Shown here in pieces: positions 11,930 to 39,460 of a stretch of DNA of 45,827 nt (its first letter is position 1; each line of letters starts with the position of its first letter). The notes under the pieces were generated by a model, which made no database searches, had not been told where the DNA came from, and was given only the letters and a program-made list of their open reading frames with translations. The stretch lies in the NCBI GenBank assembly GCA_017537045.1, contig JAFYLN010000193.1, positions 1 to 45,827 of the forward strand, written 5' to 3'. The DNA comes from Oscillospiraceae bacterium (GTDB taxonomy: Bacteria > Bacillota_A > Clostridia > Oscillospirales > Oscillospiraceae). The position numbers and the translations under genes were made by a program.

Positions 11930-11935
11930 ATCCGC

Positions 11936-12930: not shown

Positions 12931-12971
12931 CGCCGTTAAGCTATATCGGGAATACCAAGTATGCCAAATGT

Positions 12972-18486: not shown

Positions 18487-19422
18487 TCAGAGCATGCCTT
18501 TGGCAACTTTGACGAGGTTCTCCGCGCTGAGGCCGAACTGCTTCAGCAGGGGTGCAAAGGGACCGGAGTGGCCGAACTCGTCGTTGACACCCACGCGCTT
18601 GACGGGAGTAGGCAGCTTCTCAGCCAGAACAGCAGCCACTGCTTCGCCCAGACCGCCGATGATGGAATGTTCTTCAGCGGTGATCACCTTGCCGCACTTG
18701 CGGGCAGCTTCCAGCACCAGCTCCTCGTCCAGAGGCTTGATGGTGCCCATATTGACAACCATGGTATTGATACCGTCGTTTGCCAGTTCTTCCGCTGCGG
18801 CCAGTGCCTCTGCAACCATCAGGCCGTTGGCAATGATGGCAATATCGGAACCGTCACGGAGGACTTCGCCTTTGCCGATCTGGAATGTAAAACTGTCATC
18901 ATGGATGACCGGCACGGGTGCGCGGCCGAAGCGCATATAGACGGGACCCACATGCTCATAGGCAGCTCTGACCATAGCCTGTGCTTCCACATCATCGGCA
19001 GGGCTCATGACCACCATGCCGGGGATGGAGCGCATCAGCGCAAAGTCTTCGCAGCACTGGTGGGAAGCACCATCCTCACCGACGGAAATGCCGCCGTGGG
19101 TCGCACCAATCTTGACGTTCAGATGGGGGTAGCCGATGGAGTTGCGAACCTGCTCAAATGCACGGCCTGCTGCAAACATGGCGAAGGAGGATGCAAAGGG
19201 CACAAGGCCGGTGGTAGACATGCCGGCTGCCATGCAGATCATGTTTGCTTCTGCAATGCCGCAGTCAAAATGACGCTCAGGAAATGCCTTCTGGAAGGTA
19301 GCGGTCTTGGTTGCACCGGCAAGGTCGGCATCCAGAACCACCAGATTTTCATACTCTGCGCCCAGCGCGGCCAGAGCCTTACCGTAACTGTCACGGGTTG
19401 CGACTTTCTTTACATCTGCCAT
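18487..19422 (-). CDS. Transketolase, C-terminal subunit
   Basis: This 311-residue half-transketolase carries the pyrimidine-binding domain, with VLDADLAGATKT, the FDCGIAEANMICMAAGM stretch holding the catalytic Glu, THGGISVGEDGASHQ and a C-terminal TPP_C domain (VVNMGTIKPLD). It pairs with the product of 19424-20269 to move two-carbon units between sugar phosphates in the cytoplasm. The gene starts 1 bp after the N-subunit stop, so expression is coupled. With XylAB nearby it would process xylulose 5-phosphate. Confidence 0.95.
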   Translation of the reverse strand: MADVKKVATRDSYGKALAALGAEYENLVVLDADLAGATKTATFQKAFPERHFDCGIAEANMICMAAGMSTTGLVPFASSFAMFAAGRAFEQVRNSIGYPHLNVKIGATHGGISVGEDGASHQCCEDFALMRSIPGMVVMSPADDVEAQAMVRAAYEHVGPVYMRFGRAPVPVIHDDSFTFQIGKGEVLRDGSDIAIIANGLMVAEALAAAEELANDGINTMVVNMGTIKPLDEELVLEAARKCGKVITAEEHSIIGGLGEAVAAVLAEKLPTPVKRVGVNDEFGHSGPFAPLLKQFGLSAENLVKVAKGML

Positions 19423-19423
19423 T

Positions 19424-20269
19424 TTACTTGCCCTCCAGTTCGCTCAGAATTGCCTTCAGTTCGGTCATTGCCTGCTCATACTCGGCATCATTGGGAGCCT
19501 TGCCATGCCAGCCGGCGTTATTTTCCATGTAGGAAACATCCTTGCCCTTGGTAGTCTTCATGACGATGGCGGTGGGCTTGCCCTTGGTTGCCTTTGCTGC
19601 TTCAAAGGCTGCTTCGATCTGCTCGAAGCTGTGGCCATCGATGGCAATGGTGTTGAAGCCGAAAGCTTCCAGCTTGCCGACAATGGGATAGGGGCTCATG
19701 ACCTTATCGATCGCACCGTCGATCTGCAGGCCGTTGTTGTCAACGATGACGACCATATTGTCCAGCTTGTAATGGGCTGCTGCCATGCATGCTTCCCAGA
19801 CCTGGCCTTCCTGGATCTCGCCGTCGCCCAGCAGGGTATAAACGCGGGCCGTGCTGCCCTGATGCTTCAGACCCAGTGCCATGCCAACGGCGCAGGAAAT
19901 TCCCTGACCCAAGCTGCCGGTGGACATATCCACACCGGGAACAGAATTCATGTTGGGATGACCCTGCAGGTAGGAATCAATATGGCGCAGGGTGGGCAGA
20001 TCTTCCACAGGGAAGAAGCCCTTCTGTGCAAGCACGGAGTACAGGCCGGGTGCAGTGTGACCCTTACTCAGAACAAAACGGTCGCGGCCTTCCCATTTGG
20101 GATTGGCAACATCCACATTCAGTTCCTTGAAGTACAGATAGGTGAACATGTCCGCAGAGGACAGGCTGCCACCCGGATGGCCTGCCTTTGCACCATGTGT
20201 AGCGGTAACAATGCCCATACGCACCTTACAGGCAGTGATCTGCAGTTGCTTTTTTTCCAGTTCAGTCAT
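19424..20269 (-). CDS. Transketolase, N-terminal subunit
   Basis: The 281-residue subunit carries the thiamine diphosphate pyrophosphate-binding domain. It shows HGAKAGHPGGSLS, SKGHTAPGLYSVLAQ, GSLGQGISCAVGMALG and the metal/TPP motif GDGEIQEGQVWEA ending in DNN. Split transketolases are common in Clostridia and archaea. It is the first gene of a two-gene operon with the promoter at 20340-20367 and a GGAGAATTCGAATT spacing to the ATG. Confidence 0.95.
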   Translation of the reverse strand: MTELEKKQLQITACKVRMGIVTATHGAKAGHPGGSLSSADMFTYLYFKELNVDVANPKWEGRDRFVLSKGHTAPGLYSVLAQKGFFPVEDLPTLRHIDSYLQGHPNMNSVPGVDMSTGSLGQGISCAVGMALGLKHQGSTARVYTLLGDGEIQEGQVWEACMAAAHYKLDNMVVIVDNNGLQIDGAIDKVMSPYPIVGKLEAFGFNTIAIDGHSFEQIEAAFEAAKATKGKPTAIVMKTTKGKDVSYMENNAGWHGKAPNDAEYEQAMTELKAILSELEGK

Positions 20270-20481: not shown

Positions 20482-21882
20482 TTATTGCACCGGTTCCTCC
20501 GTGCGGATCAGTTTTTTGATGTGCAGCACCACAGGAATCGCGACAATAATTGCAGTCAGGCCGGTGCAGATATTACTGATCATCATGGTCATGCCCACAG
20601 CTTCGGGACCAACGGTCGTAAACTGCTGGAACGCCCACAGCACCGGGACACGGAAAACAAACACACGTGCCACATTCAGCAGCATGGTCAGTTTGGTATA
20701 GCCGTAACCCAGCAGCAGCGCCATAGTTGCGGAATTGATGCCCAGTGTCACATAGCCCAGCATTTCCCAGCGGTGGATCTCTACGATCATCGCGCAGAAA
20801 TCCTGATCGAAGTTATTTTTTGACCGGGCGAAGATTTCTGCCAGCCAGGGCAGCGTGTTGGACACCAGCGCCAAACCAATGGCACCCACCGCCACATCCA
20901 GAAAGAGCAGACAGTAAAAAAGCTTCAACGTTCGCCGGTATTTCCCGGCGCCGCGGTTCTGGCTGATCAGCGGTGCCGCGCCATCGGTCAGGCCAATCTG
21001 CCAGGAGGTGGTCAGGCCACCGATATTATTGGAAATACCCAGCGCGCCAACCGTCAGGCCGCCGTAAAGTCCGGACATGGAGTTGACGATAACCTTTCCC
21101 GCGGCAAACAGTACCTTTTCTGCCGTTACCGGATAGGAAAGGTTCAGAATCGGGGCAATGGTCTCTTTCTTCCAGCGGATATTCCGGAAGGAGAAACGGA
21201 ATGCGCCGTCATCATGGCTCATGGAAAACAACGCATAGCCCAGCAGCAGTACCTGGCCGATCAGTGTTGCAATGGCGATCAGCACCAGGCCGCCCTCCAG
21301 TACATAGACAAAGAATGCCGACAGCGCCAGCTTCACCAGCACGATGACCAGATTCAGCTTCAAAATCTTTTTCGCATGACCGCGGCTGCGCTCAATGGCT
21401 ATGTAGACAGTATTGAAGAAGTTGATCACCAGTGTCAGTATTTCAATACGGAAATATCCGACACCGGTGGTGATGAGATTTTCCGGTGTTCGCAGCAGTC
21501 TCAGAAACTGGGGTGCAAAGGGAATCAGCACCACTGCGACAACAATGCTCACCACGGTTGCCATGGCGTACACCGTTGCCACGCGGGTACGGACTGCTTC
21601 ATAGTCGCCCTGTCCGTATGCCATGGAGATCTTGATGCAGCCGCCCACCGCAAGGCCTGCGCCCAGCGCCGTGATCATCAGCGTGATCTGGCTGAGCGCC
21701 GCCACAGCAGATACCTCATCGGCACCGATATGGGAAGCCATTAGCGTATCCAGCGTTTTGAAGATCGACTGAAGTGCCTGAAACAATGCCAGCGGCAGGC
21801 AGGTGCTTACCAGCACCTTCATCGGCGCACCATTCAACGCAAAATCGCGGAATTGTTCATCTTTTTTGGAAACGGTCGCCAT
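20482..21882 (-). CDS. MATE-family exporter, last gene of the pectin block
   Basis: The 466-residue protein has about twelve predicted helices and MATE features: PMKVLVSTCLPLALFQAL, then DTLMASHIGADEVSAVA. It starts 2 bp after the acetylesterase stop, and its ribosome-binding site lies inside that gene. It differs clearly from the MATE at 17087-18421, so the two are not a recent duplication. A role in exporting something released during pectin breakdown, or an aromatic compound, is possible but only inferred from position. Confidence 0.9.
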   Translation of the reverse strand: MATVSKKDEQFRDFALNGAPMKVLVSTCLPLALFQALQSIFKTLDTLMASHIGADEVSAVAALSQITLMITALGAGLAVGGCIKISMAYGQGDYEAVRTRVATVYAMATVVSIVVAVVLIPFAPQFLRLLRTPENLITTGVGYFRIEILTLVINFFNTVYIAIERSRGHAKKILKLNLVIVLVKLALSAFFVYVLEGGLVLIAIATLIGQVLLLGYALFSMSHDDGAFRFSFRNIRWKKETIAPILNLSYPVTAEKVLFAAGKVIVNSMSGLYGGLTVGALGISNNIGGLTTSWQIGLTDGAAPLISQNRGAGKYRRTLKLFYCLLFLDVAVGAIGLALVSNTLPWLAEIFARSKNNFDQDFCAMIVEIHRWEMLGYVTLGINSATMALLLGYGYTKLTMLLNVARVFVFRVPVLWAFQQFTTVGPEAVGMTMMISNICTGLTAIIVAIPVVLHIKKLIRTEEPVQ

Positions 21883-26472: not shown

Positions 26473-27606
26473 TTAATTTTCCTCCTTATTGGATAACAGT
26501 AATTCTGTATAAGCCATCAGGAACGGTGCCAGACCCTTGGCATCGTTTTCGACGATGGGTTCGCTGATGTAGTATTCATAGCTGCCGTCGCGGCGGCGGT
26601 TGTTCTCAGGACCAAGGCCTGCCACCAGACAGATACCGCCCAGATTCAGCTTGCCGTCGGTATCAGTCAGATAGCGGCCGCAGATGGCGTTGAAGATCTT
26701 TTCGCCCACAGCAGCATAGGAAGCATCCAGAATGTCCAGTCTTGCGCCCTTCAGGTAGAAATAAGCCACCATGGCGGAACCGGAGGTTTCAGGATAGTTA
26801 CCCTCCCGTCCGATCTGGTTGGGCACCTGCCAGAGCATGCCCGTCTCTTCGTCGATGTAGGGAAGCAGGTTTTCTGCCAGTTCTGCTGCAATAGATGTCA
26901 TTTCTGCACGGAATGCAGCATCATCCACATTATCGGTCACATCGATCAGGGCTGCGCTGAACCAGCCAAGGCTTCTCAACCAGGGATTGCGGGAGCAGCC
27001 GTTCTCCAGACACCAGAAAGCAGTCTTACTGGCATCGTAACCATGGCGGTACAGGCCGGTTTCCGGATCGAACATCTTTGCACGAACCGTGCGGAACTGG
27101 TTCAGGATATCCTCGTAATGGGCACCGTTTTCAAACTCAGCGGTATACTTGCTGTAAAACACCTGTGCCATGTACAGGCCGTCCAGCCACACCTGATTGG
27201 GATAAATGGCCTTATGCCAGAAGTTGCCTTCGTGCGTTCTGGGCTGGCGCCGGATCTGGCCGTACAGGGTCTCAATGGCCTTACGGTACTTTTCTTTACC
27301 GCTCATGCGGTAAACATCAAACAGCACGCGGCCTTCGCAGATGTTATCCAGATTATAGTCGGCCTCTTTGAAGCCCCGAAGCGAACCGTCCTCAAAGACA
27401 TAATAATCCAGAAAATTCTCAGCAAATTCATAGTAACGGGACTGACCCGTAATTTTGTGCATGTTCAGCAGGGCGATCATCATGCAGCCGTCGATATAAT
27501 TCCAGCCGTTGATCTTACCCTGGTGGATCTTTTCGATGTTCCACAGGGGCTTATCCGGCGTAGACTCCGCCATAATCCGCTCTACATAGCGTTCGATCTG
27601 ATTCAT
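26473..27606 (-). CDS. Unsaturated rhamnogalacturonyl/galacturonyl hydrolase (GH105)
   Basis: The 377-residue cytoplasmic enzyme hydrates and releases the 4,5-unsaturated galacturonyl end left by pectate or rhamnogalacturonan lyases. It has the (alpha/alpha)6-barrel family signature, with WNYIDGCMMIALL, the catalytic Asp in QVWLDGLYMAQVFY, YRHGYDASKTAFW and PWLRSLGWF. There is no signal peptide. It overlaps GH28 by 4 nt (ATGA), so both should be made together. Its presence implies that lyase products made outside the cell are imported, although no lyase gene is in the window. Confidence 0.92.
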   Translation of the reverse strand: MNQIERYVERIMAESTPDKPLWNIEKIHQGKINGWNYIDGCMMIALLNMHKITGQSRYYEFAENFLDYYVFEDGSLRGFKEADYNLDNICEGRVLFDVYRMSGKEKYRKAIETLYGQIRRQPRTHEGNFWHKAIYPNQVWLDGLYMAQVFYSKYTAEFENGAHYEDILNQFRTVRAKMFDPETGLYRHGYDASKTAFWCLENGCSRNPWLRSLGWFSAALIDVTDNVDDAAFRAEMTSIAAELAENLLPYIDEETGMLWQVPNQIGREGNYPETSGSAMVAYFYLKGARLDILDASYAAVGEKIFNAICGRYLTDTDGKLNLGGICLVAGLGPENNRRRDGSYEYYISEPIVENDAKGLAPFLMAYTELLLSNKEEN

Positions 27607-29144
27607 TCGTCGACCACCTCATCTACATTTACTGTGATCAGCCGGTCACCATCCTGACCGGACATCGTAACGTTTTTCAGGTGCACCTTTTTTACACCGT
27701 TGAAGTACAAGCCGCGCTTGCACTCATCATCGATGTAGTCCATCATAGCAGGGCGGCCGGGACGTGCATCCTCCTTAAAGGTAAAGCTGACATTCTCGAT
27801 GGTGACGCTGCCGATGGGCTGCTCCGTCAAGCCGTAGAAATATCCTGCTGCCCATTCGCAGTCGGCACATTCCATATCGCGGAATGTAAAGCTGCCAAGG
27901 TAGGGTGTGGTATCGTCCACGGGATGAGGCTGCTTGTCCCAGACAAGCTTTTCATGACCATCCGGATCGCAGAAATAGTACATATTCATAACCAGCGGTG
28001 CCATGACATTGTCCATCCGGATGTTGGAGAATTCCACACCATCGATCACGGCGTACTTGCCGCGGCCGCGGCGGGTCTTGATGCGAAGACCCCGGTCGGT
28101 ATGGTTGAAATAGCACTGGCTGACCGTCAGATCCTTAACGCCGCCGGACATTTCACTGCCCAGCACCATGGCACCGTGGGCGTACTCCATCAGGCAGTTG
28201 CGCACCACATGGCGGGTAGCGGGTGTCTGGTATTTCATTCCCATGTACATCTTGCCCGCCTTGATGGCAATAGCATCATCGCCCACGGAGTAGCGGACAC
28301 CGATGAAGCGCACATCATCACAGGATTCGGGGTCGGTGCCGTCCGTATTGGGACTGTTGGAGGGAGCCTCCACAGCGATGTTATAAAAGCCTACATTCTT
28401 GCAGAAGAAGGGGTGGAAATTCCAGGAAGCAGAGTTGCGGCCGGTAATGCCATGGAAGGTAATCCCCTCGCAGTGGTTGAAAAACACCAGTCTGGGACGG
28501 GCGATTTTGCGGGTCTTGACATTCTGCCACCATGTGGCGTTCTGGGCATTACCGTCGATGATACCCTGACCAACGATGGCAATATCCTCCGCATAATGGG
28601 CGCTGATAAAGCTCTGGCGCCCTGGGAACGGATTGCCCTCCCAGGATGTGACCTGTAACTCGGTGCCGGTGTGGGCATCACGGATCTCTCCGGGAAGCAG
28701 GGGGTAGTGATCCTCGCAGGTATCACCCAGCAGATGGGCGCCGGCTTTCAGTTCCAGCGTCAGATGGGATTTCATCACCAGCGGGCGCACATAGTAGGTG
28801 CCCTCCGGAACCGTCACACGGCCATAGGGAGGACAATAGTTGATGGCGCTCTGGATTGCATTGGTGTCGTCATTGACACCATCACCTGCCGCGCCAAAAT
28901 CCTTGACGCTGATACAGGCTGATTCTTTCTTTGTAGTAACGGTTACTTCGTTACCGCCGATGGCAATGGTGTATTCCGTTTCCGGCTGCAGATCGAACAA
29001 AGAAAAAACATTGGTGCGCACGCCCTGAAGGGCGGGCGCACCATTTACAGACACGTCAAAGGCGTTTTCTGCATAATACGGAGTTGAATTTTCAAGTTCA
29101 AAGCAAGCAGAAACAGAGGATACATAGAGGGCATGAAATTCCAC
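27603..29144 (-). CDS. Polygalacturonase / exo-galacturonidase (GH28)
   Basis: This 513-residue protein has an N-terminal fibronectin-like domain (to about residue 75), then the right-handed beta-helix with AAGDGVNDDTNAIQSAI. The catalytic signatures are NTDGTDPESC, VGDDAIAIK and, later, RIKTRRGRG. The usual GHG His block appears as YAHGAMVLGSEMSGG. There is no signal peptide, so it cuts imported oligogalacturonides, more likely exo than endo. The start is a GTG at 29142-29144 with GAGG 8 nt upstream; no ATG lies near. Confidence 0.92.
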   Translation of the reverse strand: MEFHALYVSSVSACFELENSTPYYAENAFDVSVNGAPALQGVRTNVFSLFDLQPETEYTIAIGGNEVTVTTKKESACISVKDFGAAGDGVNDDTNAIQSAINYCPPYGRVTVPEGTYYVRPLVMKSHLTLELKAGAHLLGDTCEDHYPLLPGEIRDAHTGTELQVTSWEGNPFPGRQSFISAHYAEDIAIVGQGIIDGNAQNATWWQNVKTRKIARPRLVFFNHCEGITFHGITGRNSASWNFHPFFCKNVGFYNIAVEAPSNSPNTDGTDPESCDDVRFIGVRYSVGDDAIAIKAGKMYMGMKYQTPATRHVVRNCLMEYAHGAMVLGSEMSGGVKDLTVSQCYFNHTDRGLRIKTRRGRGKYAVIDGVEFSNIRMDNVMAPLVMNMYYFCDPDGHEKLVWDKQPHPVDDTTPYLGSFTFRDMECADCEWAAGYFYGLTEQPIGSVTIENVSFTFKEDARPGRPAMMDYIDDECKRGLYFNGVKKVHLKNVTMSGQDGDRLITVNVDEVVDE

Positions 29145-29184: not shown

Positions 29185-30264
29185 TCAGCGGATAACCATC
29201 TCGGTCTCAGCATCAAACAGGTAGGTGCTTGTAACGGGGATGGAGAAGGTAATCTCAGTGTCCAGCTCGGGGGTATCGTGGGGATTGACCTTCAGAATTG
29301 CGTTGGTTTCGCCGATATTGACGTAGACGTTGGTATTGTCGCCCAGCATTTCGGTCAGCTCTACAACTGCATTCAGGACATAGGCATCTTCCTGACCACC
29401 CAGAACGATGGCCTCGGGACGGAAACCGAAGTAGATCTCCCTGCCCTCGTATGCTGCCTTATGCTCGCCCAGATTCTTGGATATATCCAGCTTGATACCG
29501 CCGACCTCCACGCAGCCGCCGTGAACCGTACAGCGGACAAAGTTCATGGGAGGCTCACCGATGAAGCCTGCAACAAACAGATTCACAGGTTCGTAGTACA
29601 GCTCATAGGGCGTACCGACCTGCTGGATATAGCCATGCTTCATGATAACGATACGGTCAGCCAAAGTCATAGCCTCGATCTGGTCATGGGTAACGTAGAT
29701 GGTAGTCGCACCGGTCTCGCGGTGGATCTGGGCGATCTCAGCACGCATGGTAACGCGCTGCTTGGCATCCAGGTTGGACAGGGGCTCGTCCATCAGGAAG
29801 ATGCCGACCTTGCGGATGATGGCGCGGCCGACCGCAACTCTCTGGCGCTGACCGCCGGACAGTGCGCGGGGCATACGATCCAGATAATCCGTCAGACCCA
29901 GAATCTTGGCAACATGGGTAACCTTCTGCTCAATGACATCTTCATCAACGCCCTGCAGGCTCAGGCCGAATGCCAGATTGTCATAAACAGTCATCTGGGG
30001 ATACAGTGCATAGCTCTGGAAAACCATGGCGATTTCTCTTTCGCGGGGACCCTTGTCATTGGCATATTCCCCGTTGATCAGCAGTTCGCCGCTGCTGATA
30101 TTCTCAAGGCCTGCGATCATGCGCAGTGTGGTGGATTTGCCGCAGCCGGAAGAACCGACGAACACGATAAATTCACCTTTTTCGATTTCAAGGTTGAAAT
30201 CATGAACCGCATGGAAGCCGTTGGGGTAGATTTTATTGATACCTTTCAGCGTCAGGTAAGCCAT
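29185..30264 (-). CDS. ABC sugar importer ATPase (MsmX/UgpC type), copy 1
   Basis: This 359-residue ATPase powers CUT1 importers from the cytoplasmic side. Walker A is GSSGCGKST, the Q-loop lies in MVFQSYALYP, the signature is LSGGQRQR, Walker B is IFLMDEPLSNLD and the H-loop is YVTHDQ. A C-terminal TOBE regulatory domain follows EPPMNFV. I prefer the ATG at 30264 to a GTG four codons earlier, because GGAG abuts the GTG but lies 11 nt from the ATG. It shares the block with a second, diverged ATPase (31531-32610). Such ATPases often serve several importers, so it may also energise the 11-14 kb importer. Confidence 0.95.
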   Translation of the reverse strand: MAYLTLKGINKIYPNGFHAVHDFNLEIEKGEFIVFVGSSGCGKSTTLRMIAGLENISSGELLINGEYANDKGPREREIAMVFQSYALYPQMTVYDNLAFGLSLQGVDEDVIEQKVTHVAKILGLTDYLDRMPRALSGGQRQRVAVGRAIIRKVGIFLMDEPLSNLDAKQRVTMRAEIAQIHRETGATTIYVTHDQIEAMTLADRIVIMKHGYIQQVGTPYELYYEPVNLFVAGFIGEPPMNFVRCTVHGGCVEVGGIKLDISKNLGEHKAAYEGREIYFGFRPEAIVLGGQEDAYVLNAVVELTEMLGDNTNVYVNIGETNAILKVNPHDTPELDTEITFSIPVTSTYLFDAETEMVIR

Positions 30265-30324
30265 ATATTCCGACACTCCTTTAACAAAGTCGATTCACTA
30301 CTGGTATATCCGTCAGGCAGTCAT

Positions 30325-30930
30325 TCAGACGGCTCTGACTTTGCGGATGAGTTCTGCAAGTGCACGCTTGATCCATATAAACAGCATATCAAATCCCATG
30401 CAGAATGTACCGAACAGGATGGGCTCCACGCCCAGATAGACAACATCCGTTGTCCCAAGGAGCAAAGAAAGTACACCGTTGATGGCATTGTAGGTCATGT
30501 AGATGCACACAACAATCACGCAGCCATACACAATATTTCCGAAAAAGCTGCCCATTCCCTTTTTGGGGAAGAACATCCACGGATCATTTTCACCGGGAAT
30601 CTTTTCCATAAACCGGATGATGCTGTTTTCCAACACATCCATGACCATACCCAGAACAACGCCCAGAACGAAGAGCATGTCCAGCATACTGCCAACATAA
30701 AGTCCCAGACCCCACAGGATGAAGAAACACACAGAACCTGCAAACCATGCTTTCACCAGCAGAAGCTTTACCCAGTCTGCTATATGAAATCCTTTTTTGG
30801 TGCGGTAGCGGTTCAGTTCCTCCTGAGAATACTGCGGTGCTTCCTCCCTGTCAGCATTGGCCAGTGTTTCCACAGCATCGCTTTTCAGGTTGTAATTGAC
30901 GTTTTCTTTGGAATCTTTCTGGTCTTTCAT
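30325..30930 (-). CDS. Unknown multi-pass membrane protein A
   Basis: This protein of about 201 residues has a charged cytoplasmic N-terminus of some 55 residues. Four or five predicted helices follow, two close together from residue 58 on (VCFFILWGLGLYVG, MLFVLGVVLGMVMDVL), then FGNIVYGCVIVVCIYMTY and PILFGTFCMGFDMLFIWI. It ends in a basic tail. I do not recognise the family. I start at 30930, where AAGGA is 5 nt upstream; the ATG two codons earlier touches it. It lies between the two ABC ATPases, so a role in or near the importer is likely but unproven. Confidence 0.82.
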   Translation of the reverse strand: MKDQKDSKENVNYNLKSDAVETLANADREEAPQYSQEELNRYRTKKGFHIADWVKLLLVKAWFAGSVCFFILWGLGLYVGSMLDMLFVLGVVLGMVMDVLENSIIRFMEKIPGENDPWMFFPKKGMGSFFGNIVYGCVIVVCIYMTYNAINGVLSLLLGTTDVVYLGVEPILFGTFCMGFDMLFIWIKRALAELIRKVRAV

Positions 30931-30967
30931 ATGCATCCTTGCCTGTCAGATAGTTTTGTGCCAGGGA

Positions 30968-31528
30968 TCAGTCGTTCAGCTCGATGGCTGCCATGGAATC
31001 ATTGCCTTCAACTTCCACGGCGGTGTTGATCTTCCGCAGGAGTTTGCTGTAAACAGGCAGCAGCACCACCAGAACAGCAGAAGCAATCATCATACCCACA
31101 TGGGTATTGAGCATATTGAAGGCATCTGCGATATACTGCGTTTCCTTACTCAGGACGATGGGGTTTTCGGGGCGGCTCAACGCAGCCATGACCGCATTCG
31201 TGTAGTGGATATCGCAGTAAATGATGACCGCAAACATGACGAACATGACCACAATCATAGGAATATTGGGCTTCTTCCGGCGGGGGAAAGCGTTGAGCAT
31301 ACAAACCAGGCTCAGCAGGCTGAACAGCATAATGCAGAACTGGCTCAGACCCATACCCATGCCCTGAATCTTAGCCGTGGTGTCGGACATATTTGTCAGA
31401 TTCAGAGAATAATACAAAAATGCGATGAACAGCATTACCAGAGGAATCATGGAAGGATTACGCTTCAGAGAAACGATGAACTTACGGATCGCTTCCTTGA
31501 AGCCGCCGGTTTTCTTCATCTTAGCCAT
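30968..31528 (-). CDS. Unknown multi-pass membrane protein B
   Basis: The 186-residue protein has a basic N-terminus and four predicted helices: MIPLVMLFIAFLYYSL, FCIMLFSLLSLVCML, IPMIVVMFVMFAVIIYC and MMIASAVLVVLLPVY. A polar loop separates the last two. No family is recognised. I chose the ATG at 31526-31528, 7 nt from GGAGG (31536-31540); a GTG two codons before it is too close. The gene follows ATPase copy 2 with almost no gap, so they are translationally linked. Confidence 0.82.
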   Translation of the reverse strand: MAKMKKTGGFKEAIRKFIVSLKRNPSMIPLVMLFIAFLYYSLNLTNMSDTTAKIQGMGMGLSQFCIMLFSLLSLVCMLNAFPRRKKPNIPMIVVMFVMFAVIIYCDIHYTNAVMAALSRPENPIVLSKETQYIADAFNMLNTHVGMMIASAVLVVLLPVYSKLLRKINTAVEVEGNDSMAAIELND

Positions 31529-31530
31529 GA

Positions 31531-32610
31531 TCACACCTCCACTTTGATGGCATTGGTGGTTTCCTTATCGAAGAACCGCTTACGGGTGATAGAAATACCA
31601 ACAACATCATTTGCCTTGTAGTTGCACCAGCCGTTCAGCTTACAGGTGATGCGCTCACCCTTGCCGTCTTCGCCGATGTGGCCATGAACCAGCGTATTCA
31701 TGCCCAGATTCTCATTGGACAGAACCTTCATCTTAAAGTCGCTGCCCACGCAGGTATTCTCAGGACGGAAGCCCAGAACGATGGTCTTGCCTTCATAACC
31801 GGCCAGTGCCTTCTTTTCAGCATCATCCATGGAAACCGTAAATTTCTTGGTGACCAGTTCGCCCTGCTGCACGGTTGCATCCACAAAGTTCATAGGAGGC
31901 AGGCCGATAAAGCTTGCAACGAACAGGTTTGCGGGATTATCGTACAGCTCCAGAGGCGTACCGATCTGCTGAACGTGACCCATGGACATACACACGATGC
32001 GGTCAGCCAGCGTCAGCGCTTCGGTCTGATCGTGGGTAACGTAGAGCATGGTGGCGTTCAGGCGCTTGTGCAGCAGCAGAATCTCGCGGCGGGTTGCGCT
32101 GCGCAGCTTTGCGTCCAGATTGGACAGAGGTTCGTCAAACAGGAACAACTGGGGATTACGAACAATGGAACGACCCATTGCAACTCTCTGGCGCTGACCG
32201 CCGGAAAGCTGGGCAGGCTTCTTGTTCAGCTGCTCGGTCAGACCCAGAATTTCGGCTGCTGCCAGAACCTTCTTGTGGATAACATTGGGATCCTCCTTGC
32301 GCAGGGTCAGGGAGAATGCCATGTTTTCATAAATGGTCATGTGGCCGTACAGTGCATAGTTCTGGAAAACCATGGCAATGTCACGATCCTTTGCGGGGGC
32401 ATCGGTAACATCCTTGCCATTGAGCAGCATCTTACCGCGGGTAATGTCTTCCAGACCGGCGACCATTCTCAGGGTAGTGGACTTGCCGCATCCGGAGGGG
32501 CCGACCAGAACGATCAACTCACCATCTTTAACATCGAGGTTGAAGTCGAATACGGCCTGAACGTTATTGTCATAGACTTTTTCTAAATGCTGTAAACTCA
32601 GTTCTGCCAT
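31531..32610 (-). CDS. ABC sugar importer ATPase (MsmX/UgpC type), copy 2
   Basis: The 359-residue ATPase has Walker A GPSGCGKST, Q-loop MVFQNYALYG, signature LSGGQRQR, Walker B LFLFDEPLSNLD and H-loop YVTHDQ, with a C-terminal TOBE domain starting near LPPMNFVDATV. It clearly differs from copy 1 over its length, so the pair is an old duplication or two acquisitions. Two such ATPases in one block with one pair of permeases is more than one importer needs. The gene lies between unknown membrane-protein pairs. Confidence 0.95.
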   Translation of the reverse strand: MAELSLQHLEKVYDNNVQAVFDFNLDVKDGELIVLVGPSGCGKSTTLRMVAGLEDITRGKMLLNGKDVTDAPAKDRDIAMVFQNYALYGHMTIYENMAFSLTLRKEDPNVIHKKVLAAAEILGLTEQLNKKPAQLSGGQRQRVAMGRSIVRNPQLFLFDEPLSNLDAKLRSATRREILLLHKRLNATMLYVTHDQTEALTLADRIVCMSMGHVQQIGTPLELYDNPANLFVASFIGLPPMNFVDATVQQGELVTKKFTVSMDDAEKKALAGYEGKTIVLGFRPENTCVGSDFKMKVLSNENLGMNTLVHGHIGEDGKGERITCKLNGWCNYKANDVVGISITRKRFFDKETTNAIKVEV

Positions 32611-32623
32611 AACAATCTCCCTC

Positions 32624-33115
32624 TCATGCGGTCTTGTTTTCGATGGTCTGCATATGTGCAGCCAGCTTCTTATTGTTATTGCTGCTGTTCACCGCAGCAA
32701 AGATGCAGCATACTGCGGACAGTGCCAGACAGATCACGGTGTAGAAATATTGTCCGTTGCCCATAACCGTCTGCTCTGCACCTGCGATCACAACGGTTGC
32801 GGCATGCGCCTTGGCGGGCAGGTAGAAAATACGGATAATCTGGAACAAACCCAGTGCGATCAGCGGCACGGTAAAACCGGTCTTACGGCTCTTAACGCCT
32901 TCGGATGCCAGAAATGCAATCAGAAGGAACAGCAGATTGCAAATGATGGAAGCACCGATCACCCAGTTATAGTACCAGGTAGAAACGTCGGACTGGTAGA
33001 TGCTGACAAAATACAGGCAGTCCAGCACGATGGCAGCAATGACTGCATTGGCAGACAGGGTGTCTTTGGTAAAGCGCATCCGGTCTCTGGAAATGGTGAT
33101 TTCTTCCTGTGTCAT
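32624..33115 (-). CDS. Unknown multi-pass membrane protein C
   Basis: The 163-residue protein has four predicted helices: ANAVIAAIVLDCLYFVSIY, VIGASIICNLLFLLIAFL, VPLIALGLFQIIRIFYL and FYTVICLALSAVCCIFAAV. The Asn/Lys-rich C-terminus is cytoplasmic by prediction. No family is recognised. It overlaps the upstream gene by 4 nt (ATGA) and ends 13 bp before ATPase copy 2. The tight packing says it is made together with the transporter genes. Confidence 0.8.
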   Translation of the reverse strand: MTQEEITISRDRMRFTKDTLSANAVIAAIVLDCLYFVSIYQSDVSTWYYNWVIGASIICNLLFLLIAFLASEGVKSRKTGFTVPLIALGLFQIIRIFYLPAKAHAATVVIAGAEQTVMGNGQYFYTVICLALSAVCCIFAAVNSSNNNKKLAAHMQTIENKTA

Positions 33116-33705
33116 ACAGCAATCTCCTCTCCGGCCTTGATCAGAGCATCTTCTTCACGCATCATTCTGATCTTCCAAATCATGTTATACACCAGACCTG
33201 CAACGCACAGCAGCATAAAGCCACCGACAACATAGTGCAGATCCAGCATCAGGGTAGACTTAATAAAAGGTTTATTCTTCATCTCACAAAGCTCTTTCAG
33301 CGCCTCGAAATCAACAGTAGTCAGGTACTGGAAGCGGAAGGCGGTGATCTGGATGTGAGACCAAACAACACAGGCAACACTTGCCACGGAGTAAAGACCG
33401 ATGGACACATAATTGCCGATGTAATATTTTCTGCGGATATTGGTGTTCATCAGGAACAGGAATGCGCCGAGTAGAATCAGCACAATGCTGAACTTGACAA
33501 ACTGCTGGTTAAATGTCTGCATCTGATAATAAATGGTAGAGCCAGCCACCCGGCCGTCATCGGTGGGCTTCTTAGGATCGGTGGCAAGATACAGACCGTC
33601 GTAAATATCAGTCAAAATACCAAGGGAATATACAAAGGTAACGGCCGCTGCGATCAGGCACAGCATGCAGATGATCTTCTGGAAACGTAGCTGTTTCTTG
33701 TACAT
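33112..33705 (-). CDS. Unknown multi-pass membrane protein D
   Basis: The 197-residue protein has four predicted helices: IICMLCLIAAAVTFVYSLGI, FSIVLILLGAFLFLM, YVSIGLYSVASVACVVWS and VVGGFMLLCVAGLVYNMIW. A loop of about 40 residues follows helix 1 and another precedes helix 4. Both could lie outside the cell, near the binding protein. No family is recognised. GGGGAGG lies before the ATG. It is the first of the membrane-protein/ATPase group and follows the binding-protein gene after a hairpin-bearing gap. Confidence 0.82.
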   Translation of the reverse strand: MYKKQLRFQKIICMLCLIAAAVTFVYSLGILTDIYDGLYLATDPKKPTDDGRVAGSTIYYQMQTFNQQFVKFSIVLILLGAFLFLMNTNIRRKYYIGNYVSIGLYSVASVACVVWSHIQITAFRFQYLTTVDFEALKELCEMKNKPFIKSTLMLDLHYVVGGFMLLCVAGLVYNMIWKIRMMREEDALIKAGEEIAV

Positions 33706-33842: not shown

Positions 33843-35978
33843 TTAACCGATGGTTGCGTAGTAAGCCAGCAGACGGTCGTAAGCAGCCTGCTTATCGTAC
33901 AGGTACAGCTTGCCGTTCATAGTGTTGACTGCGTAATCAGCAGCCTCTTCAGCGGAGCCCATGCCGTCATGGACATAGCCGCCGGCGATCTGGTCGACGA
34001 AGTAGTTGACCTGATCATCGCCCTTGGAGGAGGAGTAGCTGTTCTTCAGCTCGGTCAGGCCGGCGATCTCGTCGTTTTCAGCCTGAGTAGTGGGCAGGAC
34101 GGTGGGAACGGAGATGTACCAGGGGTTCTCGGTGATTGCCAGCTCGGGATGCTTGATGGTGCCCAGAGCGATAGCAGTGGAGATGTAGCCTGCGCCTTCC
34201 TTACCGACCTCGTGGGTGCACTGGTACTCGAATGCCTGGCTCTTGACGAAGGACAGGGTGGAGCCCAGATAGTAACGTGCGTAGTTGGTGTAGTTGCCGG
34301 AAGCCTTCTCCCACAGCTCAGCGTAGGTAGCATCGGCGATAACGGGCATTTCCTTGCCGTTGAAGTTGAAGGTCTCGCCTTCCTTGATGAATGCGGAAGG
34401 ACCGTAGGACATCAGGATCTGACCCTCGGGGGAGTATGCATAGTCGATCAGTGCCAGAGCAGCATTCAGCTTGTTCTCATCGCCAGCAACACCGGCAACA
34501 GAGATGCCCCAGCCGTCGGTCTTGACGGAGCGCCAGGACTCGGTGAAACGCATGTACTTCTCTTCGCCGTCGTTCCACTTCGCAACGGGAACCATGACTG
34601 CCATGTACTTCTCGCCTTCCTGCAGCTTGGTCTCGTTCAGGATGGTCTGAGTCTGGTTGTAGTCGTAGCTCATGAAGCCCATGTCGTTCTCCAGCATGGT
34701 GGAGGAGGACTCCTTGGAGCCATCAACGAAGGACTTGGAGATCAGGCCTTCAGCGACCATGTCGTTCATCTTTTCGATGGCTGCATAAGTCTCAGCTTCC
34801 TGACGTGCGTCATGCAGCTTGCCGTCGGTGCCGACGTACAGGTAATCCTGACGGGATTCCAGACCGCGGACGCCGAACAGAACACCAGCGAAGCGGAACA
34901 GGTCAACACGGCGCTGGTTGTTGTTGTCCTCACGGGAGAACAGACCCTGGATGGTATCGGTGCCGTTCAGAGTCTGAGCGTTTGCCACGACGCAGCGCAG
35001 CAGAGCGACCATTTCGTCAGCATCCCATGCAGCGTTCTGACCAACGAACAGGTCGGAACGGGTGGTGCCGTAGTAGCCGTTGTAAGCGGTATCAATGTAG
35101 GTACGCAGCATGTTGACGGCTTCAACACCGCTCATAGCGCCCTTCTCGTTCATCAGAGCAACGATGTTGCCGGCAGCGTCGTAATCCTTGGTGACCTGCT
35201 CGACTGCGGAACCGTCAGCCTTGACAACGTCAACGACGACCTTGCCGGAGGTGGGCATATAGGGCTCGTAAACAGCAGCAGCGGTGGTGCCGCTCTTCTC
35301 AGCGGTGAACTCGCCTTCGCCGTCCAGCAGCTTGACAGCCCAGTCAACACGCATCAGAGGCATACGCTCGATGTCGTTAACACCGTCGAAGTAGGGGGAG
35401 AAGTAGATGGCGCCGTTGTCAACGTTACCGGTGACGGACAGGCGGACGATTGCATTTTCTTCCAGATATGCCTTGAAGTTGGGCATCTTGTCCAGATGCT
35501 CAGCCAGATTGACCAGAGAACCGGCTTCGCCGAACTCGGACAGCTGGGCAGCAGTACCGCTGACCATGTCGACCTCGTTCAGGCGGTCCTGCCAGTACTT
35601 GAACTCGTTGCTGGCGGAGTTGCCCTGATACAGGTTTTCAAACTTCATACCCAGAACGTCCTGAACCTCAACCCAGGTGGGCTTCAGGTCGCCGGTCTGG
35701 TAGGTCTTGCCGTCAGCCAGAGTGATGCCCTCGCCAGCGGTCTCAGCGTCAAAGAACAGGCCGGTCTTTGCGCTGTTGTAGCCGGTAGCCATTCTCAGAA
35801 CAGTGCCGGCCTCGAATGCCAGAGGATCCTTGTTTTCCTCGACGGGGTTGGTTTCCTGCATAACAGGCTCGGTAGCAGGCTGCGTTGCAACTTCCAGCTT
35901 ATTGCCGCCGCAGGCTGCCAGAGCCATGGTCAGGCACAGAACCAGAAGCAGAGAAACCAAACGCTTCATGTTTTTCAT
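33843..35978 (-). CDS. Large solute-binding lipoprotein of the pectin-oligosaccharide importer
   Basis: This 711-residue protein has a lipoprotein signal ending in LAAC (Cys near residue 23) and a short Glu/Thr/Pro-rich linker. A family 1 type solute-binding region follows. It is much longer than usual binding proteins (about 400-550 residues), which suggests a large ligand site or an extra domain. A C-terminal region after about residue 430 resembles the LplA/YtcQ pattern (WGISVAGVAGDENKLNAALAL, YSPEGQILMSYGP). It should catch oligogalacturonides or rhamnogalacturonan fragments for the LplB/LplC-type permeases just upstream. GGAG is 7 nt from the ATG. Confidence 0.9.
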   Translation of the reverse strand: MKNMKRLVSLLLVLCLTMALAACGGNKLEVATQPATEPVMQETNPVEENKDPLAFEAGTVLRMATGYNSAKTGLFFDAETAGEGITLADGKTYQTGDLKPTWVEVQDVLGMKFENLYQGNSASNEFKYWQDRLNEVDMVSGTAAQLSEFGEAGSLVNLAEHLDKMPNFKAYLEENAIVRLSVTGNVDNGAIYFSPYFDGVNDIERMPLMRVDWAVKLLDGEGEFTAEKSGTTAAAVYEPYMPTSGKVVVDVVKADGSAVEQVTKDYDAAGNIVALMNEKGAMSGVEAVNMLRTYIDTAYNGYYGTTRSDLFVGQNAAWDADEMVALLRCVVANAQTLNGTDTIQGLFSREDNNNQRRVDLFRFAGVLFGVRGLESRQDYLYVGTDGKLHDARQEAETYAAIEKMNDMVAEGLISKSFVDGSKESSSTMLENDMGFMSYDYNQTQTILNETKLQEGEKYMAVMVPVAKWNDGEEKYMRFTESWRSVKTDGWGISVAGVAGDENKLNAALALIDYAYSPEGQILMSYGPSAFIKEGETFNFNGKEMPVIADATYAELWEKASGNYTNYARYYLGSTLSFVKSQAFEYQCTHEVGKEGAGYISTAIALGTIKHPELAITENPWYISVPTVLPTTQAENDEIAGLTELKNSYSSSKGDDQVNYFVDQIAGGYVHDGMGSAEEAADYAVNTMNGKLYLYDKQAAYDRLLAYYATIG

Positions 35979-36037: not shown

Positions 36038-36928
36038 TTATTCCTTCACGCCGCCCACATTGACACCCTTTGCGAAATACTTCTGAATAAAGGGATAAAT
36101 GATCAGGATGGGCACAATGGAACAGACGATCAGTGCATAAATAACAGAATCGGAAGAGTAAACCTCGTTCCAGCCGGCCATCTGCTCGGGGTCCGTGAAC
36201 TGCTCCAGCTTCAAACGGATAAAGACCTGCAGAGGATGCTCGTTGGCATTGGAGATCATCTGGCGAGCCCAGAAGTAGCCGTTCCAGCGGGAGATGGCAA
36301 AGAACAGGGCGACCGTTGCGATGGTGGACTTGCTCATGGGGATATAGACCTTGGACAAAACCTGGAACTCGGTAGCGCCGTCAACGATGGCAGCTTCCTC
36401 AATATCGGAGGGAACACCTTCGAAAGCATTGCGCAGCAAAATGATGTTCATGGCTGCCATACCCATGGCGATAACGACCAGCCACTTATCGTCCATAATG
36501 CCGATGGAGTTGAACACTTCCTTGGTATCCAGATAGTTCAGATACTGGGGGATAATACCGGCAGAGAACCACATGGTGAACACCAGGAAGAAGTTCAGGC
36601 CGCGGCGGAACAGCAGGCGCTTCTTGGACAGTGCATAAGCACCCAGAATCGCCACGAACAGAGACCACACCGTGCCGTAGAACGTCAGGAACAGGGTGTT
36701 GGAATATGCGTTCCAGAACATATTGTCATTGAACATGCGGGAGAATGCCTCAAACTGGATATCCTTGGGGAAGAGGATGATTTCACCGTAATCCACAGCG
36801 CTCTGTCCACTGATAGAGGCAGACAGAACATAGACAAAGGGATACAGGCAGCACAGGGCAAACATGGTCAGCATGGTGTAGCTGACGATCTTAAATACCA
36901 GTTCGGAGAATTCAAGCTTTCTTTTCAT
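36038..36928 (-). CDS. ABC sugar permease, LplC/YtcP type
   Basis: The 296-residue permease has six predicted helices and an EAA loop with DIEEAAIVDGATEFQVLSKV followed by IPMSKS. It ends in KGVNVGGVKE, a tail typical of this subfamily. It forms the pore with the LplB-type partner 15 bp upstream. GGAGG lies before the ATG. Confidence 0.94.
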   Translation of the reverse strand: MKRKLEFSELVFKIVSYTMLTMFALCCLYPFVYVLSASISGQSAVDYGEIILFPKDIQFEAFSRMFNDNMFWNAYSNTLFLTFYGTVWSLFVAILGAYALSKKRLLFRRGLNFFLVFTMWFSAGIIPQYLNYLDTKEVFNSIGIMDDKWLVVIAMGMAAMNIILLRNAFEGVPSDIEEAAIVDGATEFQVLSKVYIPMSKSTIATVALFFAISRWNGYFWARQMISNANEHPLQVFIRLKLEQFTDPEQMAGWNEVYSSDSVIYALIVCSIVPILIIYPFIQKYFAKGVNVGGVKE

Positions 36929-36943: not shown

Positions 36944-38002
36944 TTAATAGAGCGATACATCCGACGCCTTGCGGGCGATGGTGTTAGCGCCGATGACCAG
37001 CAGCATGCCGATGACGTTGCTCATCATTTCTGCAGCAGAAGCAATACCCTGTGTGGAGGCAGCCTCGGTACCCAGACGGTATGCCAGCGTGGAGACCACG
37101 TCAGCGGTGACGAAGGTGTTTGCATTGTACAGCAGCATGACCTTTTCATAGCCGATGGTCAGCAGGGAGCCGATACGGGTGATCAGCATGATGACCAGCG
37201 TGGACAGGATGCTGGGCAGCACAACGTACTTCATCTGAGCCATCTTGTTGGCGCCGTCGATCTGGGCAGCTTCATAGCTGGTCGGAGAAATGGCAATGAT
37301 GGCTGCAAAGAAGACGATGGAGTCATAGCCAGCAGTTTCCCAGATACCGGAGATCTGGTAGATACCACGGAAGAAGCCGGGATTGTTCAGAAGGCCGGCG
37401 TTGGCCACTTCCTCAGAGATCAGACCCAGCGCGCACAGCCCCTGGGACAGGATGCCCATGTTGGTGGTCAGGGAGCCCTGCTTGACCAGCATGGTAACCA
37501 GAGATGTCATAACGACGGTGGAAATGAATTTAGGCAGGTAAGTCAGCACCTGATAAACGCTTCTGAGGATATTGGACTTGATCTCGTTAAAGAACAGCGC
37601 CAGAATGACCGGCACCGGGAAGCCGAAGATCAGACCATAGAAGCTCAGCAGGAACGTGTTGCGCAGTGCCCGCCAGAACTCGGTGGACAATGCATCGCCG
37701 CTGAACAGCAGACGCTTAAAGTAAGAGAAACCGGAGAAGAGCTGTTCTGACACCGGCTTGACCTGATCTGCCACCTTAAAGCAGCGGATCAGCTCGTACA
37801 TGGGAAAATATCTCCAGAACAGGAACACCAGAATCATGGGAATCAGCATGATGTACAAGCGCCAGTCCTTGAGAACCGTAGTTGCCACATTTTTCCAGTA
37901 GTGCTTCTCGACTTCGTCGCGCACCAGCTGCTCCGGGTTCGTACGGTAGGTTTGTGAGGCCTTATCATAAATAAGGAAATCCCCAGCCAAAGTTTTTTTC
38001 AA
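36944..38002 (-). CDS. ABC sugar permease, LplB type
   Basis: The 352-residue permease has a 45-residue charged N-terminal extension, six predicted helices and the EAA loop SYEAAQIDGANKMAQMKYVV. Members of this group import complex polysaccharide fragments in Firmicutes. The start is a TTG (38000-38002): the frame has no ATG before the first helix, GGGGAGGA (38008-38015) lies 5-6 nt away, and the TTG overlaps the stop of the upstream gene as TTGA. This predicts coupled and perhaps limited translation. Confidence 0.92.
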   Translation of the reverse strand: MKKTLAGDFLIYDKASQTYRTNPEQLVRDEVEKHYWKNVATTVLKDWRLYIMLIPMILVFLFWRYFPMYELIRCFKVADQVKPVSEQLFSGFSYFKRLLFSGDALSTEFWRALRNTFLLSFYGLIFGFPVPVILALFFNEIKSNILRSVYQVLTYLPKFISTVVMTSLVTMLVKQGSLTTNMGILSQGLCALGLISEEVANAGLLNNPGFFRGIYQISGIWETAGYDSIVFFAAIIAISPTSYEAAQIDGANKMAQMKYVVLPSILSTLVIMLITRIGSLLTIGYEKVMLLYNANTFVTADVVSTLAYRLGTEAASTQGIASAAEMMSNVIGMLLVIGANTIARKASDVSLY

Positions 38003-38586
38003 AACTGTCCTCCCCTTTCGGCTTTATGCTCACGCTCCATGCGTAGCAAATAGTGTTTTTGGTCTTCGAAAAGACCCTCTACACGACGGATGCTCCATGC
38101 AATGGCCACACAAAACAGTGCCGAGAGCAAATCTGTCGTAATAAAGCGAATACAAACGTCTGCCGGATATCCCAGCAGGGCAGCCATGCCGCTGCGGCCA
38201 AGCTGCATCAGGATCTGCGTCGCAAGCGCAAAGAAAATGGTCATGAGGGCATCTCCGCGAACGCGCTCTTTGCCGAACCATTTCAGCATCAGCAGCGCAC
38301 CCAGAGAAAGCAGGTTGCCAACGCCGTAGATCAGAACGTGCTGCCAGCTGCCTCCGGCGATCAGGGCGTACAGCACACCACCCAGCGCCGCATGGATCGC
38401 AGCCCAGCCGCTCCAGCGCATCATCACCAGCGCCACCACCGCAGCGATGGGCGAGACCACATACAGCTGGTCGGCATACAGAACCGTGGCCGCAAAATGG
38501 ATCACAATCTGCGATACCGCCAATACCACCATCAGGATCGTCAGATCGATGGCACGATACTGACTGAAGGATATTTGACGATTCAT
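37999..38586 (-). CDS. Membrane protein resembling an ECF-transporter S component
   Basis: This 195-residue protein has five or six predicted helices, with LTILMVVLAVSQIVIHFAATVLY, SPIAAVVALVMMRWSGWAAIHAALGGVLYALI and SLGALLMLKWFGK. The layout and the Gly/Ala-rich helix 3 recall S components of energy-coupling-factor vitamin or sugar transporters, but I see no T component or ECF ATPase nearby. The frame stays open to 38961 upstream, yet that part is a shadow of the pectinesterase gene. I use the ATG at 38586 behind AAGG. It overlaps the LplB-type permease start by 4 nt. Confidence 0.82.
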   Translation of the reverse strand: MNRQISFSQYRAIDLTILMVVLAVSQIVIHFAATVLYADQLYVVSPIAAVVALVMMRWSGWAAIHAALGGVLYALIAGGSWQHVLIYGVGNLLSLGALLMLKWFGKERVRGDALMTIFFALATQILMQLGRSGMAALLGYPADVCIRFITTDLLSALFCVAIAWSIRRVEGLFEDQKHYLLRMEREHKAERGGQF

Positions 38587-38590
38587 AATC

Positions 38591-39460
38591 TTACCTTGCT
38601 TCTTTATTCCGGTTTGCCCAGACGACCCGCCCGGCAATTTCCGGTGTTTCATAGAACCGGGCGGTTTTATCCCGGTCTGTATCGTTCCACTTGTCGAACC
38701 CTTCCGGTGCAATATGGGAACCGTAAGTACAGTTTTCAAAGGCTGCAATACCATGATCCCGCCAGGGACGAGCCAGGTATACGCTGCCCGGTACAACCTT
38801 TTCTTCTGCCGTAAAGCAGCAGTTGCGGAAGCAGAAGCCCTCCTGCTGATGCAGGCCATGGGAAGGCGCCGCCACGAAACCGATCCGGCCGTCATCAAAC
38901 ACGGAGCGGATCTCGCAGCTTTCGAATTCCGCCACGCCGGAGCCGAAAATGAAATCAACACTGCCTTCGATCAGGCAGCCGTCGAAGACCTGGTGCAGTT
39001 TTCCACCGCGCCGCAGGGGATCCAGCAGGAAACCCTCATAGCGGCCGATCAGATCCGCCGGCAAGGGGCCTGCGAACAGGGTATCCTGTGTAGAGAACAG
39101 CCTGCAGTTTTCCATTCGGAAATCATCCGCCACCACGCTCAGCGCCACTTCCTGCCCCTTTTCTCGGGGGCAGCCAGCATCGTTGGCAACCGTCAGATTC
39201 CTCATGGTCACGCCATCGGCACAGACAGCCAGCGTGTAGGTTCGAAAGGTGTTATATTCCCAGCCGACCGGATGGGGTTTTCTGGCGTGGTCATCCCAGA
39301 CAATGACCGTTTCCGCAGCGCTGCTGCCTTCCAGTGTCAGACCCGGTGTGCGCAGCATCAGTTTCTGCCGGTAGACACCCGGTTCCAGATGAACTGTTTC
39401 GCCTGCGGGTGCGGCATCGAATACCGCCTGCAGGTTATCTTCAGGGGTTACACAGATCAT
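38591..39460 (-). CDS. Pectin methylesterase (CE8), cytoplasmic
   Basis: The 289-residue enzyme removes methyl esters from galacturonic-acid units, releasing methanol. It has the CE8 beta-helix with GVYRQKLML, the oxyanion/acid block STQDTLF, the nucleophile Asp in SVDFIFGSG and the Arg-bearing YLARPWRDHG. There is no signal peptide, so it acts on imported oligogalacturonides. Its ATG overlaps the stop of the TIM-barrel gene by one base, and the ECF-S-like gene follows after 4 bp. Confidence 0.93.
   Translation of the reverse strand: MICVTPEDNLQAVFDAAPAGETVHLEPGVYRQKLMLRTPGLTLEGSSAAETVIVWDDHARKPHPVGWEYNTFRTYTLAVCADGVTMRNLTVANDAGCPREKGQEVALSVVADDFRMENCRLFSTQDTLFAGPLPADLIGRYEGFLLDPLRRGGKLHQVFDGCLIEGSVDFIFGSGVAEFESCEIRSVFDDGRIGFVAAPSHGLHQQEGFCFRNCCFTAEEKVVPGSVYLARPWRDHGIAAFENCTYGSHIAPEGFDKWNDTDRDKTARFYETPEIAGRVVWANRNKEAR

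What the first reader, a model, noticed from the sequence alone, without database searches (positions are those of the whole stretch)
30325..33705. Four unknown multi-pass membrane proteins interleaved with two ABC ATPases
Between the large binding protein and the GH28 gene the order is membrane D, membrane C, ATPase, membrane B, membrane A, ATPase. The four proteins (163-201 residues, four or five helices each) match no family I recognise, are packed with overlaps or short gaps, and lie inside a transporter operon that already has its own permease pair. One importer needs one ATPase pair and no such extras. They could be accessory subunits of an importer for large pectin fragments, an undescribed small-subunit transporter, or regulators of the permeases. 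This is the best candidate in the window for an undescribed system.
Basis: partly seen in the sequence, partly recalled or inferred. Interest (0 to 1): 0.72.

Follow-up and report, generated by a model that had tools for sequence, protein, structure and literature searches.

The report
Pectin-uptake operon with unknown membrane proteins
Next to a sugar importer for pectin fragments, this gut-type bacterium carries not four but five small membrane proteins of no known family, and the same genes in the same order recur beside the same importer in other bacteria, which suggests that they are unrecognised working parts of it.

Summary
Four unknown four-helix membrane proteins and two MalK/UgpC-type ATPases lie between the binding protein and GH28. 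A fifth unknown membrane protein, M0 (37999-38586, minus), was missed; it abuts the first permease.

The cassette M0-permB-permC-SBP-M1-M2-N1-M3-M4 is strongly conserved. In 80 loci found through M1, the order M1-M2-N1-M3-M4 is complete in 77, and the other 3 are cut by the locus end. M0 precedes permB in 61 of 61 loci with room. Searches started from M4, M3, M2 or M0 find the same cassette, also in MAGs titled Chloroflexi. N1 and N2 are two separate ATPase clades. A deeply diverged version keeps the order with one ATPase and a uronate-lyase-like gene instead of GH28. The SBP resembles alginate-binding AlgQ.

Best reading: an enlarged type I ABC importer for uronate oligosaccharides with five extra membrane subunits. 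Genetic association is well shown; physical assembly and function are inferred. I found no known family for the five. Novelty: new variant of a known kind.

The parts
37999..38586 (-). M0, unknown membrane protein, 195 aa, about 5-6 hydrophobic segments; overlaps permB start by 4 bases
   Evidence: present in 61 of 61 loci with room upstream of permB; no Pfam/NCBIfam family found, PDB only weak
36944..38002 (-). permB, LplB-type permease with EAA loop
   Evidence: (PF00528)
36038..36928 (-). permC, LplC-type permease with EAA loop
   Evidence: (PF00528)
33843..35978 (-). SBP, 711-aa lipoprotein solute-binding protein; nearest solved structure AlgQ1
   Evidence: (E 2.6e-7; LAAC lipobox)
33112..33705 (-).
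32624..33115 (-).
31531..32610 (-). N1, MalK/UgpC-type ATPase; at 78% identity or more seen only in genomes with M4 in the 197
30968..31534 (-).
30325..30930 (-).
29185..30276 (-). N2, second MalK/UgpC-type ATPase (ATG at 30264 likely start)
27603..29144 (-). GH28, polygalacturonase-like, no signal peptide seen by inspection
26473..27606 (-). GH88/GH105-type uronyl hydrolase, no signal peptide seen by inspection
38591..39460 (-). pectinesterase-like protein, no signal peptide seen by inspection, upstream of M0

Best explanation
M0-M4 are obligate extra membrane subunits (or permanent partners) of a dedicated type I carbohydrate ABC importer for uronate oligosaccharides. Proposed mechanism: a large AlgQ-like lipoprotein binds acidic, probably esterified, oligogalacturonides outside. 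The permB/permC channel, driven by an N1/N2 ATPase pair that is probably a heterodimer, pulls them in. The five extra proteins (about 21-22 further membrane segments) flank the permease, hold the binding protein over it with their conserved outer loops, and couple to the ATPases through conserved cytoplasmic tails and loops. Cytoplasmic GH28, GH88/105 and pectinesterase then cut the fragment. Shown: gene content, order, co-inheritance, separate ATPase clades. Read by eye: absence of signal peptides. Inferred: physical assembly, the heterodimer, the role of each subunit, substrate and its length.
For: Order: M1-M2-N1-M3-M4 complete in 77 of 80 M1-found loci; the other 3 (L015, L034, L040) run off the locus end; none has another order. 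M0 before permB in 61 of 61 loci with at least 900 bases upstream. Not only an artefact of searching with M1: M3-first finds 9 strong genomes of 299, and all 7 new ones have M1-M2-N1-M3-M4, 6 of 7 also permB-permC-SBP on the same contig; M2-first finds 5 of 147 genomes and all 4 new ones have permB to M4 (M0 was not scanned). M0-first in 299 genomes finds the same 9 plus 2 with a diverged version in the same order; in 197 genomes it finds 5 of the 6 genomes with M4. One strong M1 match per genome in 13 of 13. N1 and N2 form separate clades away from 27 general ATPases. The diverged version keeps homologues of M0, M1, M2 and M4 (hhalign 94-98%; off-diagonal pairs 1.2% or less). SBP relatives are AlgQ1/AlgQ2.
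Against: No direct evidence of physical contact; complexes could not be modelled. Distance-matrix comparison did not separate membrane genes from the GH28/GH105 controls. SBP relatives occur apart from the cassette: L144 (16 kb seen) and L143 (a 6.1-kb contig). M3 of the diverged version is only positional (hhalign 5.6%). N2 was not seen in every locus, and G003 has no N2 above 53%. B. subtilis YtcQP-YteP is described, in the passages seen, as SBP, two transmembrane proteins and MsmX, and serves polygalacturonan use (PMC5730181).
Confidence: 0.6

Rival explanations
1. M0-M4 are assembly factors, chaperones or regulators that insert, stabilise or tune this importer, without being part of the working machine (a role that could also be imagined for YesL/DUF624-type neighbours of LplBC permeases; that is recalled, not tested).
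For: Small multi-pass proteins beside LplBC permeases exist elsewhere: a DUF624 gene sits next to the other permease pair of this window (10415-11077), and a similar frame next to the sister operon in L145 (by eye). The same co-inheritance would be seen.
Against: Five separate families kept together in fixed order, some overlapping by 4 bases, are more than one assembly factor would need. M1-M4 show no similarity to the window's DUF624 protein (hhalign at most 0.5%, a weak test against one sequence; M0 not compared).
Confidence: 0.22
2. M1-M4 with N1 form a second, separate ABC-like machine (for example an exporter or a small-subunit importer), and permB/permC use N2 only.
For: N1 sits between M2 and M3 in every complete locus while N2 moves. 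N1 differs from general ATPases in a stretch near the presumed permease contact (YALYGHM against YALYPHM; the contact is recalled).
Against: None of M0-M4 has an EAA coupling loop, while 64 of 64 permB and 67 of 68 permC rows do. The diverged cassette shows a single ATPase, within 20 kb, in the N1 position. In the 80 loci, those without permB or permC begin at or inside the cassette.
Confidence: 0.08
3. The five are membrane enzymes or partner channels that handle a product of pectin breakdown (for example export of methanol, acetate or charge-compensating ions) rather than parts of the importer.
For: The region includes esterase-type genes, and import of polyanions would need charge balance (inference).
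Against: No consistent family match was found (capped lists for M1-M3). The diverged cassette with a lyase-like gene in place of GH28 keeps them.
Confidence: 0.07

Closest known systems
Bacillus subtilis YtcQP-YteP / LplABC-type carbohydrate importers energised by MsmX
   Same: SBP, two transmembrane proteins and a MalK-type ATPase, with a role in polygalacturonan/rhamnogalacturonan use (PMC5730181, passages seen)
   Different: Shared ATPase MsmX and no M0-M4-like partners mentioned in the passages seen; here two system-specific ATPases and five extra membrane proteins. No sequence comparison with the B. subtilis proteins was made
Sphingomonas sp. A1 alginate importer AlgM1M2SS with AlgQ1/AlgQ2
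   Same: SBP is a sequence relative of AlgQ1 (E 2.6e-7), and the SBP of the diverged cassette of AlgQ2 (E 1.3e-28); import of acidic saccharides followed by cytoplasmic breakdown (recalled)
   Different: Gram-negative system with one ATPase type and no extra small membrane subunits (recalled)
DUF624 / YesL family
   Same: Small multi-pass protein encoded next to LplBC permeases; one is in this window at 10415-11077
   Different: No profile similarity of M1-M4 to the window's DUF624 protein; one protein there, five different ones here
ECF vitamin transporters
   Same: Small multi-spanning subunits plus two different ATPases, by analogy only (recalled)
   Different: M0 shows no profile similarity to 30 frames taken as ECF_trnsprt S components from the same genomes (hhalign 0.2%); the ATPases are MalK/UgpC-type with the OB_MalK domain

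Membership tests
Type I carbohydrate ABC importer (MalFGK/LplABC type) | Two PF00528 permeases with EAA loops | tested here: met
   window pair; 64 of 64 permB and 67 of 68 permC rows
Type I carbohydrate ABC importer (MalFGK/LplABC type) | MalK-type ATPase with intact Walker A, signature, Walker B and H-loop | tested here: met
   both N1 and N2, OB_MalK domain in both
Type I carbohydrate ABC importer (MalFGK/LplABC type) | Extracytoplasmic lipoprotein solute-binding protein | tested here: met
   LAAC lipobox by inspection, relative of AlgQ1
Type I carbohydrate ABC importer (MalFGK/LplABC type) | Complete with SBP, two permeases and two ATPases, no further membrane subunits | not testable with these tools
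   searches show M0-M4 encoded with it; whether they are subunits needs an experiment
DUF624/YesL | Profile match to PF04854 | tested here: not met
   Searches (M1-M4 of the window, E up to 1; M0, all 14 families listed, E up to 0.5): none; not among the families shown (25 of 34, 33, 36 for M1-M3; 13 of 13 for M4)
ECF transporter S component | Profile similarity of M0 to ECF_trnsprt (PF12822) | tested here: not met
   no Pfam hit; hhalign 0.2% against 30 frames from the same genomes
Rnf-Nqr (RnfE/NqrD) | Whole-length similarity of M3 to the family | tested here: not met
   local match of 61 columns to RnfE (hhalign 62%), none to RnfA (0.1%); the motif is absent by eye in the diverged M3 of L142
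Tetraspanin/claudin/TARP-like four-helix bundles | Common ancestry of M1 shown by fold beyond the generic bundle | tested here: inconclusive

The most novel reading that the evidence does not exclude
This is a distinct class of enlarged ABC importer. Five otherwise unknown membrane proteins surround an LplBC-type permease and, with a dedicated asymmetric N1/N2 ATPase pair, form a vestibule or processive channel that draws in long uronate chains. The class has spread between Firmicutes and MAGs labelled Chloroflexi and has been re-targeted between polymers (pectin; a second uronate polymer with an epimerase/lyase-like enzyme).
Probability: 0.4. Interest if true: 0.85.

Novelty: new variant of a known kind. 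Interest (0 to 1): 0.7.

Why it matters
Bacterial sugar importers of this type are described as one binding protein, two transmembrane domains and two ATPase domains (start of the abstract of PMC7658222, listing). A cassette that adds five membrane proteins and a second system-specific ATPase would enlarge that picture, give function to five unnamed protein families (451, 2244 and 1380 relatives found for M4, M1 and M0), and offer a testable account of how gut and rumen bacteria take up large acidic pectin fragments for digestion inside the cell.
Full report
Names. I number the membrane proteins in transcription order (minus strand). N1 is the ATPase at 32610-31531 and N2 the ATPase at 30276-29185.

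Conservation from M1. A scan of one genome per species with two peptide patterns of M1 gave 134 stretches, 125 of them relatives, of which the best 80 loci were returned. Loci with a frame whose best window match is the named protein, of 80: M1 80, M2 79, N1 78, M3 78, M4 77, SBP 78, permC 70, permB 66, N2 66 (62 frames above 500 bits), GH28 63, GH88/105 69; some of these are weak or cut frames. Gene order on the locus strand: 62 loci have permB-permC-SBP-M1-M2-N1-M3-M4, 3 more have it with a split permB (2) or SBP (1) frame, and the other 15 are cut by locus ends. M1-M2-N1-M3-M4 is complete and in order in 77, the other 3 end inside it, and no locus has another order. Median gaps are -4 (M1/M2), 13, -4 (N1/M3) and 35 bases (earliest start codons were used, so overlaps may be overstated). 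Of the 77, N2 follows M4 directly in 21, comes after a GH gene in 43, and is not among the next three assigned genes in 13; of these, L026 and L069 have it upstream of permB.

The fifth protein. Reading the loci with N2 upstream showed a further ORF between N2 and permB. Its relatives are present in 62 of 80 loci, and in 61 of the 61 loci with at least 900 bases upstream of permB. The window copy is M0, 195 aa. Scans of 37 members gave 14 Pfam and 10 NCBIfam families, nearly all in a single member, and only a weak PDB hit (E 0.015). A profile search scored 1380 relatives at E<=1, with candidates capped at 7999; the few named among the 120 listed are 'hypothetical protein'.

Searches not starting from M1. 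M4 in 197 genomes of the order of G001: 7 genomes at E<=0.01, 6 of them real by my reading (the seventh, G568, is E 0.005 in a 954-aa frame); M3 lies beside M4 in the five inspected loci L095, L097, L098, L099, L100. M3 in 299 genomes of the family of G005: 14 genomes at E<=0.001, 9 of them at E<=1e-34. Two of the 9 were already known (G004, G005); the 7 new ones were fetched and 7 of 7 carry M1-M2-N1-M3-M4, 6 of 7 with permB-permC-SBP on the same contig (L171 begins inside M1). The other 5 genomes, and a second hit in G866, are RnfE (6 of 6 hits). M2 in 147 genomes of the family of G003: 5 genomes; the 4 new ones all have permB to M4 (M0 not scanned there). G003 is the genome of L011, titled uncultured Chloroflexi; L013 is titled Anaerolineaceae. 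M0 in the 299 genomes: 11, the same 9 plus G794 and G852. M0 in the 197 genomes: 5, all among the 6 with M4; the sixth, G472, has a contig that stops within permB. M1 has one strong match in 13 of 13 genomes checked; G011 has a second, E 0.136, with stops inside. The system is rare overall: only 1 of 398 genomes drawn from the phylum, G001 itself, has M1.

A diverged version. G852 (L250) and G794 (L251) carry M0-permB-permC-SBP-M1-M2-ATPase-M3-M4 in the same order, with one ATPase and no GH28 detected in 20 kb, and a regulator frame upstream that looks IclR-like by eye. Extended profiles match the diverged M0 (98.4%, E 7e-15), M1 (94.5%, 8e-8), M2 (96.0%, 4e-9) and M4 (98.1%, 9e-14); off-diagonal pairs are 1.2% or less. 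M3 is only positional (5.6%, its best in the row). The downstream enzyme of L251 matches dermatan-sulfate epimerase, oligoalginate lyase and a PL35 chondroitinase (best E 2.2e-19), and the SBP of L250 matches AlgQ2 (E 1.3e-28). Intermediate forms exist: L175 (complete, lower scores), and in G524 M3-M4-GH28-SBP on one contig (L142) and N2-M0-permB-permC on another (L252). So the cassette behaves as a transferable unit that has been re-targeted between uronate-type substrates (inference).

The ATPases. Family consensus lines of N1 and N2 keep the ATPase motifs. A tree of every second N1 (of 78) and N2 (of 62), the window pair and 27 general ATPases gives three pure clades of 40, 32 and 27. In a second tree with 18 of each plus diverged forms, N1, N2 and the ATPase of the diverged cassette group together (support 100, midpoint root, only 27 general ATPases as comparison). 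N1 at 78% identity or more was found in 4 of 197 genomes, all with M4; the next best full-length hits are about 53%, partial ones 61%. In five genomes whose fetched cassette region lacks N2, it was found elsewhere at 77-79% identity in 4 (G936, G937, G940, G941) and not in G003, which may be incomplete. Two system-specific ATPases therefore go with the pectin version; that they form a heterodimer is inference.

Substrate and cell biology. GH28 (PF00295; best NCBIfam PglA, below cut-off), the GH88/105-type hydrolase, a pectinesterase-like protein and other esterases in the region show no signal peptide by inspection, while the SBP has a lipobox. Altronate dehydratase, mannitol-dehydrogenase-family and SDR genes follow. 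This fits import of partly esterified oligogalacturonides followed by cytoplasmic breakdown (inference). In B. subtilis, YtcQP-YteP, thought to be energised by MsmX, takes part in polygalacturonan use (PMC5730181, passages).

Results against the reading. No physical contact was shown. Distance-matrix correlation did not distinguish subunits from enzymes. SBP relatives occur apart from the cassette: L144 (1087 aa, 56% identity, 16 kb of a 25-kb contig seen) and L143 (1181 aa, 42%, a 6.1-kb contig). The 80 loci are the best 80 of 125, their titles are MAGs or uncultured bins, and no completeness figures were given. M4's N-tail is much shorter in L142, L175, L250 and L251.

Verdict. Enlarged type I uronate-oligosaccharide importer with five unrecognised membrane partners: genetic association well shown, subunit status likely (about 0.6), mechanism inferred.

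Noticed in passing
window 37999-38586 (-): Fifth unknown membrane protein M0 directly upstream of permB; conserved in 61 of 61 loci with room.
   Followed up: yes
window 10415-14405 (-): A second LplBC-type operon (two permeases, 477-aa lipoprotein frame, DUF624 gene) with no ATPase among the frames scanned, beside GH3, GH94, GH1 and FGGY kinase genes; useful contrast to the pectin operon.
   Followed up: partly
L250:2797-10508 (-), L251:9004-17008 (+): Deeply diverged version of the whole cassette with one ATPase and, in L251, a dermatan-epimerase/oligoalginate-lyase-like gene downstream; a similar frame lies downstream in L250.
   Followed up: partly
window 31290-31400 (-), L158-L163: M3 shares a local TTxxIxGxGMGL-type stretch with RnfE; hhalign 62% over 61 columns, none to RnfA.
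   Followed up: partly
L144:3226-6489 (-), L143:2513-6058 (-): Very long SBP relatives (1087 and 1181 aa) with no cassette gene detected in the stretch seen.
   Followed up: no
   Followed up: partly
window 17087-18421 (+) and 20482-21882 (-): Two MATE-family transporters lie near or within the uronate catabolism region.
   Followed up: no
window 18487-20269 (-): Split transketolase (N and C halves as two genes) beside the uronate catabolism genes.
   Followed up: no
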